From contig NW_004624849.1 in assembly GCF_000247695.1 (NCBI RefSeq), forward strand, positions 2,265,772 through 2,329,771: DNA of 64,000 nucleotides, read 5' to 3'. Position numbers and translations under genes: made by a program. Numbering within the stretch: position 1 is the first letter of the stretch; every line of letters starts with the position of its first letter. Of this stretch, positions 56,950-57,165 are shown in pieces. Source of the stretch: Heterocephalus glaber. Taxonomy: Eukaryota; Chordata; Mammalia; Rodentia; Bathyergidae. A model generated the notes under the pieces. That model saw only the letters and a program-made list of their open reading frames with translations. It searched no databases and was not told the DNA's origin.

Positions 56950-57165
56950 TCACAAACCCTGCTTGGCCAGGGAAGCAGACACCTCATCAGCTAGAGTGGC
57001 GAGCTGGAGCGAGTCCACCATGTTGATGCTCCCAGTGGAAGAGACATTGCTGAGGTGCCTCGGAGACGTGTCCCCAGACACCACCGGCGACTTGTACACA
57101 ATTTCTGCCCCGTGATCTGTCTTGGCTTTGGCGTTCTCTCGGAAAGTCAGCTTGTGGGTCTCGAT
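56950..57165 (-). CDS. MAPT: MAPT exon 13, coding part: C-terminal tail with D418N and P423L
   Basis: 216 nt including TGA (TCA on the plus strand at 56950-56952). The acceptor on the minus strand is CCCTATAG. It encodes [40 protein letters not shown] and a tail ending in SASLAKQGL. The Ser396 and Ser404 proline-directed sites (KSPVV, DTSPRH) are kept. Near the end the sequence reads [10 protein letters not shown] where human reads SIDMVDSPQL, so the P4 Asp of the caspase-3 site and the Pro after Ser422 are both changed. Both calls rest on single bases in this read. Confidence 0.97.
   Translation of the reverse strand: METHKLTFRENAKAKTDHGAEIVYKSPVVSGDTSPRHLSNVSSTGSINMVDSLQLATLADEVSASLAKQGL

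What the first reader, a model, noticed from the sequence alone, without database searches (positions are those of the whole stretch)
57009..57031. Tau tail has Asn at position 418 and Leu at 423, altering the caspase-3 site and the Ser422-Pro motif together
On the minus strand the codons read ATC AAC ATG GTG GAC TCG CTC CAG. Human tau has IDMVD-SPQ here. Asp418 to Asn changes the P4 residue of the caspase-3 site that cuts after Asp421; caspase-3 strongly prefers Asp at P4, so cleavage is expected to be weaker. Pro423 to Leu removes the proline after Ser422, so Ser422 is no longer a proline-directed phosphosite. Both positions are central to work on tau pathology, and the remaining tail looks unchanged. 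Each is one transition (GAC to AAC at a former CpG, CCC to CTC).
Basis: partly seen in the sequence, partly recalled or inferred. Interest (0 to 1): 0.8.

Follow-up and report, generated by a model that had tools for sequence, protein, structure and literature searches.

The report
Mole-rat tau: caspase-site tail variant
This is the end of what is very probably the naked mole-rat tau gene; one of its two differences from human tau is a widespread, probably older vertebrate form and the other belongs to the mole-rat and guinea-pig branch of rodents, so the pair is real but less unusual than it first looked.

Summary
In detail: the last coding exon of MAPT (window 57165-56950, minus) encodes a tail matching human tau 371-441 at 69 of 71 residues, with Asn418 (AAC) and Leu423 (CTC). 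The gene is intact and intron-bearing, and 402 of 432 residues of a public naked mole-rat (Heterocephalus glaber) tau were matched in this genome; the other 30, in one repeat exon, were not readable.

The interpretation needs revising. Asn418 is no mole-rat novelty: it is in 75 of 75 non-mammal tau rows checked, 27 of 34 rodent species, lemurs, a tree shrew, afrotheres and a marsupial, and in the MAP2 paralogue of this genome with the same AAC codon. Whether Asp418 of human, mouse and rat is derived depends on how cheap CpG decay is taken to be. Leu423 is lineage-specific: Leu in Heterocephalus and Fukomys, Met in guinea pig, degu and chinchilla. Positions 418-423 hold 54 of 65 minority residues of the tail in 91 mammals: a variable patch.

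Weaker caspase-3 cleavage and loss of proline-directed Ser422 are untested inferences, and one data set on chick cleavage sites points the other way. The sequences are already deposited; my searches found no paper discussing the pair.

The parts
56950..57165 (-).
   Evidence: Translation; 69/71 identical to human tau; acceptor ...ccctatag directly upstream
57022..57024 (-). Codon 418, AAC = Asn (Asp in human, mouse, rat); P4 of the caspase site that cuts after Asp421
   Evidence: comparison
57010..57024 (-). Codons 418-422, N-M-V-D-S: Asp421 (P1) and Ser422 (P1') retained, P4 Asp absent
57007..57009 (-). Codon 423, CTC = Leu (Pro in human); Ser422 not followed by Pro
   Evidence: Fukomys also Leu, Cavia/Octodon/Chinchilla Met
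60473..60585 (-). MAPT exon 12 (repeat R4), 113 bases, AG acceptor and GT donor
   Evidence: reading frame joins exons 11-12-13 into 136 aa identical to H. glaber tau P0234-P0236
61760..61841 (-). MAPT exon 11 (repeat R3), 82 bases, AG acceptor and GT donor
   Evidence: PF00418 tubulin-binding repeat in the joined product

Best explanation
The window carries the 3' end of the functional MAPT (tau) gene of the naked mole-rat or a near-identical animal. The two residues have separate histories. Asn418 is most likely the old vertebrate and MAP2-like state, kept by (or early regained in) this lineage, while Asp418, which makes the DMVD caspase-3 site of human tau, is found in human, mouse, rat and the listed laurasiatheres. 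Leu423 is a hystricomorph-lineage replacement of Pro: probably Pro to Leu early in the group, then Leu to Met in the South American branch, because Pro to Met cannot be one base step (inference). Expected working (inferred, not shown): Asp421 can still be cut, but as NMVD|S rather than DMVD|S, so caspase-3 should cut more slowly. Ser422 can no longer be a target of proline-directed kinases, so the phosphorylation reported to inhibit the same cut is also altered. If a cut does occur, the new end -NMVD lacks the Asp418-Lys72 contact seen between human tauC3 and CHIP. The most economical reading of the whole is relaxed constraint on a variable six-residue patch, not an adaptation of mole-rats.
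For: Shown: exact residues and a splice-joined open frame; one exact copy in the genome; 402 of 432 residues of H. glaber tau P0235 matched in the genome, the 30 others all in the R2 repeat exon that was not readable, while Fukomys and Cavia tau differ internally; window tail identical to P0234-P0236. N418 in 75 of 75 non-mammal rows checked, in Sarcophilus, Elephas, Chrysochloris, Rhynchocyon, four strepsirrhines and Tupaia, and in 27 of 34 rodent species. The MAP2-type tail of the same genome reads SINLLESPQ with codons ATC AAC and CCT. Non-Pro423 in 5 of 5 hystricomorph species. 54 of 65 minority residues in the 71-residue tail fall in 418-423 across 91 mammal species. Equal-cost parsimony with an Asn outgroup: 5 steps with Asn at the tree root against 7 with Asp; at the hystricomorph node Asn 5 against Asp 8. 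Literature passages: a table gives human caspase-3 1.1e5 M-1 s-1 on DEVD and NA on VEID, and lists residues that hydrogen-bond to P4 Asp (PMC7846959); tauC3 Asp418 contacts CHIP Lys72 (PMC11393453).
Against: With D to N weighted at 0.5 the tree root is a tie (5.0 each); at 0.34 and 0.25 Asp is preferred at the root (3.4 against 3.72; 2.5 against 3.0), and at 0.34 also at the placental (3.4 against 4.38) and rodent (3.4 against 4.04) nodes. The species tree was recalled, not computed. The database lists show the best 120 hits of 177, 717 and 1569, and the third ranked hits by likeness to a Fukomys tail, so species counts lean to N418 and near-identical tails. Against weaker cleavage: in chick apoptotic brainstem the enriched caspase-site motif was (K/M)VD, with no Asp at P4 in that consensus (PMC8940215, passages; tau is not named in that text), and the listed chicken tau row has NMVD. 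DEVD and VEID differ at P2 as well as P4 and neither has P4 Asn, so one search does not measure the effect of Asn. No cleavage, phosphorylation or binding data exist here for NMVD or S422-L423.
Confidence: 0.8

Rival explanations
1. Asp418 is ancestral for placentals and Asn in rodents is repeated CpG decay (GAC to AAC), so the mole-rat state is a loss of the canonical caspase site, only an old and shared one.
For: Weighted parsimony favours Asp at the placental, boreoeutherian and rodent nodes when D to N costs 0.34. ATC-GAC would contain a CpG.
Against: 75 of 75 non-mammal rows checked have Asn; the same ATC-AAC codons sit in the MAP2-type exon of this genome; equal-cost parsimony prefers Asn at 6 of 7 named nodes, Laurasiatheria being the exception; golden mole, elephant shrew and elephant have Asn.
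Confidence: 0.3
2. The two changes are a linked adaptation: losing the P4 Asp makes the phosphorylation brake at Ser422 unnecessary, or both together protect long-lived mole-rats from tau truncation.
For: Both residues touch one regulatory unit. Mole-rats are long-lived and carry much phosphorylated tau without reported pathology (PMC10186612 section 2.5.1, read whole). Captive degus, which share N418 and lack Pro423, showed no tangles or pathological tau deposition in one study (PMC5002178, abstract and tau section).
Against: N418 with P423 is common (31 of 94 species rows) and D418 without P423 also occurs (horseshoe and leaf-nosed bats, shrew, pipistrelle), so the two are not tied. Another paper cites tau deposits in old degus (PMC4769573, passages). 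N418 without Pro423 is shared with guinea pig and chinchilla, so it is no mole-rat speciality. The patch is variable in general. The review itself calls it unclear whether mole-rat tau aggregates.
Confidence: 0.09
3. Sequencing or assembly error, or a non-functional copy.
For: No reads were available; two differences sit close together.
Against: Same residues in H. glaber database tau and in Fukomys; introns with normal splice sites and an open 136-residue frame; one exact match in the genome.
Confidence: 0.02

Closest known systems
Human/mouse/rat tau C-terminal tail with the caspase-3 site after Asp421 (tauC3)
   Same: 69 of 71 residues against human; Asp421, Ser422, Ser396, Ser404, Ser416 all kept
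   Different: P4 Asp418 replaced by Asn; Pro423 replaced by Leu
Fukomys damarensis tau (P0187)
   Same: N418 and L423 both present
   Different: A398 in place of V398 in the tail; several differences nearer the N-terminus
Guinea pig, degu and chinchilla tau (P0249, P0242, P0275)
   Same: N418; no proline at 423
   Different: M423 in place of L423
MAP2-type C-terminal tail of the same genome (L002; named by its match to a bird MTAP2 row, P0019)
   Same: S-I-N with codons AGC ATC AAC as in tau; 47 of 72 codon positions (stop included) encode the same
   Different: Glu at the Asp421 position (no caspase P1 Asp); Pro kept at the 423 position

Membership tests
MAPT (tau) orthologue | Tubulin-binding repeats of the tau/MAP type | tested here: met
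   PF00418, 116.8 bits against a cut-off of 27, in the joined exon 11-13 product
MAPT (tau) orthologue | Closest to tau, not MAP2/MAP4; intron-bearing and intact in the part seen | tested here: met
   136/136 identical to H. glaber tau; exon borders AG/GT; a MAP2-type tail lies elsewhere in the genome at 65%
Canonical caspase-3 site (DxxD) after Asp421 | Asp at P1 (421) | tested here: met
   GAC at 57015-57013
Canonical caspase-3 site (DxxD) after Asp421 | Asp at P4 (418) | tested here: not met
   AAC, Asn
Canonical caspase-3 site (DxxD) after Asp421 | Cleaved by caspase-3 | not testable with these tools
   needs an enzyme assay
Proline-directed phosphosite at Ser422 | Ser422 present | tested here: met
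   TCG at 57012-57010
Proline-directed phosphosite at Ser422 | Pro at +1 (423) | tested here: not met
   CTC, Leu
Proline-directed phosphosite at Ser422 | Phosphorylated in brain | not testable with these tools
   needs mass spectrometry

The most novel reading that the evidence does not exclude
The textbook DMVD caspase-3 site of tau is itself a repeatedly derived trait. Asp418 would have arisen separately in the human line, in murines, in jerboas, in laurasiatheres and in anteaters from an old Asn418, so human and laboratory mouse share a strong site by convergence, while most other rodents listed keep a weak one. Hystricomorphs in addition lost the Ser422-Pro kinase motif beside it. Mole-rat, guinea pig and degu tau would then be natural low-cleavage variants, and TauC3 and pSer422 antibodies raised on human sequence might misread them.
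Probability: 0.35. Interest if true: 0.55.

Novelty: new variant of a known kind. Interest (0 to 1): 0.33.

Why it matters
Naked mole-rat, degu and guinea pig are used or proposed as natural ageing and Alzheimer models. A tail whose caspase site and Ser422 motif both differ from human means that absence of a TauC3 or pSer422 signal in these animals may be a matter of sequence, or of antibody fit, and not of protection. It also turns a belief about tau into a testable comparison: the same protein with DMVD or NMVD in close relatives (mouse against vole or gerbil; monkey against lemur). [quoted passage not shown]

Tried and rejected
Retrocopy or pseudogene: rejected, because three exons with normal splice borders join in frame and the genome holds one exact match. 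Species unknown: narrowed to H. glaber or a near-identical animal by exon comparison. 'Both changes are unique': rejected by Fukomys. 'Asn418 is new in this species': rejected.

Papers. A text search for the strings [30 protein letters not shown] and INMVDSLQ gave 0 papers. Eight further term searches listed no paper whose title or abstract start treats position 418 or 423 across species; I saw listings, not the papers, for most. In two tau-evolution papers (PMC6759874, PMC4815063) a search of the main text for 422, 421, 418 and 423 anywhere in a word gave hits in the reference lists only. A degu study aligned human and degu tau but reports on Ser202/Thr205, Thr212/Ser214 and Thr231, with no '422' in its text (PMC5002178). 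These searches cover open-licence PMC papers; figures are not held, so an alignment figure could show the pair. Orr et al. 2015 on mole-rat tau was not read (cited within PMC10186612). PMC5099538, PMC9205779 and PMC10900669 were searched for passages and gave nothing on these residues in mole-rats. Downstream genes: only ORFs of 150 aa or more were listed for 1-52000; I named none.

Rows dropped before counts. P0221 was dropped by the script, leaving 94 species. In one search I dropped three Old World monkey rows with W406 (Cercocebus, Colobus, Mandrillus), which look like retrocopies or poor models, leaving 91, and replaced a human row that carries Asp at four phosphosites (P0186) by P0329. 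The 75 non-mammal rows are 45 and 30 picked; several are isoforms of one species, and MAP2- or MAP4-type and tail-less rows were left out.

Full report
Observation. The minus strand at 57165-56950 encodes IETHKL...[26 protein letters not shown] followed by TGA. Residue numbering comes from alignment to human tau in the PDB (query 1-71 = human 371-441). There are two differences in 71 residues: N418 (AAC, 57024-57022) and L423 (CTC, 57009-57007).

What it is. Exon 12 (60585-60473) and exon 11 (61841-61760) lie upstream with AG and GT borders and join in one open frame of 136 residues with tubulin-binding repeat matches (PF00418). All 136 residues equal Heterocephalus glaber tau P0234-P0236. The window lies in a 2.59-Gb genome of 421 contigs, which gave two matches to the exon product: one at 100% and one at 65%. 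The latter is a MAP2-type tail, so named because it resembles the bird MTAP2 row P0019. In 100 kb upstream of the window plus the window's end, 402 of 432 residues of H. glaber tau isoform P0235 were matched; the other 30 (267-296, repeat R2) were not readable there. Mismatches lay only at the ends of hits, where tblastn runs past splice borders; Fukomys and guinea pig tau show internal differences. I conclude naked mole-rat MAPT, or that of a near-identical animal.

Comparison across animals. N418 is present in 75 of 75 non-mammal rows checked, from fishes to birds, and in Sarcophilus, Elephas, Chrysochloris, Rhynchocyon, Tupaia, four strepsirrhines (Prolemur, Eulemur, Lemur, Otolemur) and 27 of 34 rodent species. 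D418 is found in human and the other listed haplorhines, Mus, Rattus, Apodemus, Jaculus, Tamandua and the listed laurasiatheres. Of 91 mammal species after dropping suspect rows, 55 have D and 36 have N; at 423, 80 have P, 4 S, 3 M, 2 A and 2 L. The two L are Heterocephalus and Fukomys; the three M are Cavia, Octodon and Chinchilla. Of 293 fetched rows with a tau-type standard tail, the only six with L423 are those of these two mole-rats. These counts come from top-120 lists out of 177, 717 and 1569 hits, the last ranked by likeness to a Fukomys tail, and the database is clustered at 90% identity. They show what exists, not unbiased frequencies.

Polarity. On a recalled tree of 59 mammals plus an Asn outgroup, equal costs give 5 steps with Asn at the root and 7 with Asp; the hystricomorph node costs 5 with Asn and 8 with Asp. 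When D to N is made cheaper to mimic CpG decay, the root is a tie at weight 0.5 and turns to Asp at 0.34 (3.4 against 3.72), yet the hystricomorph node stays Asn (3.4 against 4.08). In the same genome, MAP2 reads ATC AAC at the matching codons and CCT at the 423 position. So under both schemes Asn418 was in place before mole-rats arose, while the history further back is open. At 423, Pro is in 45 of 45 non-mammal rows and is the cheapest tree root (5 steps against 7 for each of the other residues). Amino-acid parsimony does not tell Leu, Met or Pro apart at the hystricomorph node (5 steps each). I prefer Pro to Leu to Met because Pro to Met needs two base changes (inference from the code).

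A variable patch. In the 71-residue tail of 91 mammals, 54 of 65 minority residues lie in the six positions 418-423. Position 418 alone gives 36 of these; without it, 18 of the remaining 29 still fall in 420-423. Within this sample the caspase and Ser422 site is the least constrained part of the tail, which favours drift over adaptation. No selection test was run.

Mechanism, shown and inferred. Shown: P1 Asp421 and P1' Ser422 are kept; P4 Asp and the proline after Ser422 are absent. From literature passages: a table gives human caspase-3 1.1e5 M-1 s-1 on DEVD and NA on VEID, and several residues hydrogen-bond to P4 Asp (PMC7846959, passages); cutting at Asp421 makes tauC3, which binds CHIP through its new end, with Asp418 touching CHIP Lys72 (PMC11393453, passages); the reference list of that paper holds a title saying that Ser422 phosphorylation inhibits caspase cleavage. 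Inferred: slower cut at NMVD|S, no proline-directed phosphorylation of Ser422, and an altered CHIP end if cut. None was tested for this sequence. Against a slower cut: in apoptotic chick brainstem the enriched caspase motif was (K/M)VD (PMC8940215, passages), which NMVD fits, and the listed chicken tau row carries NMVD; tau is not named in that paper's text. A zebrafish study treated Asp289 as the counterpart of Asp421 (PMC4744436, passages).

Protective story. It is weak but not excluded. Degu and guinea pig share N418 and the loss of Pro423. Degu evidence is split: one paper cites tau deposits in old degus (PMC4769573, passages), another found no tangles or pathological tau deposition in 1- to 5-year-old captive degus (PMC5002178, abstract and tau section). 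Guinea pig is proposed as a model of sporadic Alzheimer's disease (PMC3689723, title and abstract start only). For mole-rats a review calls it unclear whether tau aggregates.

Verdict. The reading of the sequence is right, the gene identification is right, the functional inference is sensible but unproven, and the claim of novelty is mostly removed. The remaining interest is that a much-studied pathological site differs between the usual laboratory rodents and most of the other rodents listed here.

Noticed in passing
P0179 (Orcinus orca), tau residue 421: Killer whale tau row has Glu at 421 (VESPQ), removing the caspase P1 Asp, while the six other toothed-whale rows in the same list keep Asp. 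Could be real, polymorphic or an error.
   Followed up: no
P0007 (Eschrichtius robustus), P0176 (Equus asinus), tau residue 422: Ser422 itself is Ala in grey whale and donkey tau rows, so the phosphosite is absent there.
   Followed up: no
P0168, P0169, P0281, P0285 (horseshoe and leaf-nosed bats); P0177 (Sorex); P0326 (Pipistrellus), residue 423: Pro423 is also lost elsewhere: Ser in these bats, Ala in shrew and pipistrelle, which also have Ala420.
   Followed up: partly
P0006, P0185, P0220 (Old World monkeys), residue 406: Three monkey rows carry Trp at 406 with other changes; perhaps retrocopies or poor models, dropped from the 91-species count.
   Followed up: no
A1 alignment, tau N-terminus, human residues 9-28: Mole-rat and mouse tau read FDTMED13 where human reads FEVMED13, and they and the other hystricomorphs aligned lack an 11-residue stretch present in human. 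A caspase site at Asp13, if used, would also have a different P4 residue; that site is recalled, not looked up.
   Followed up: no
window 5786-5857, minus: Borderline tRNA match in Rfam (29.1 bits, cut-off 29), not called by ARAGORN; perhaps a tRNA-derived repeat.
   Followed up: no
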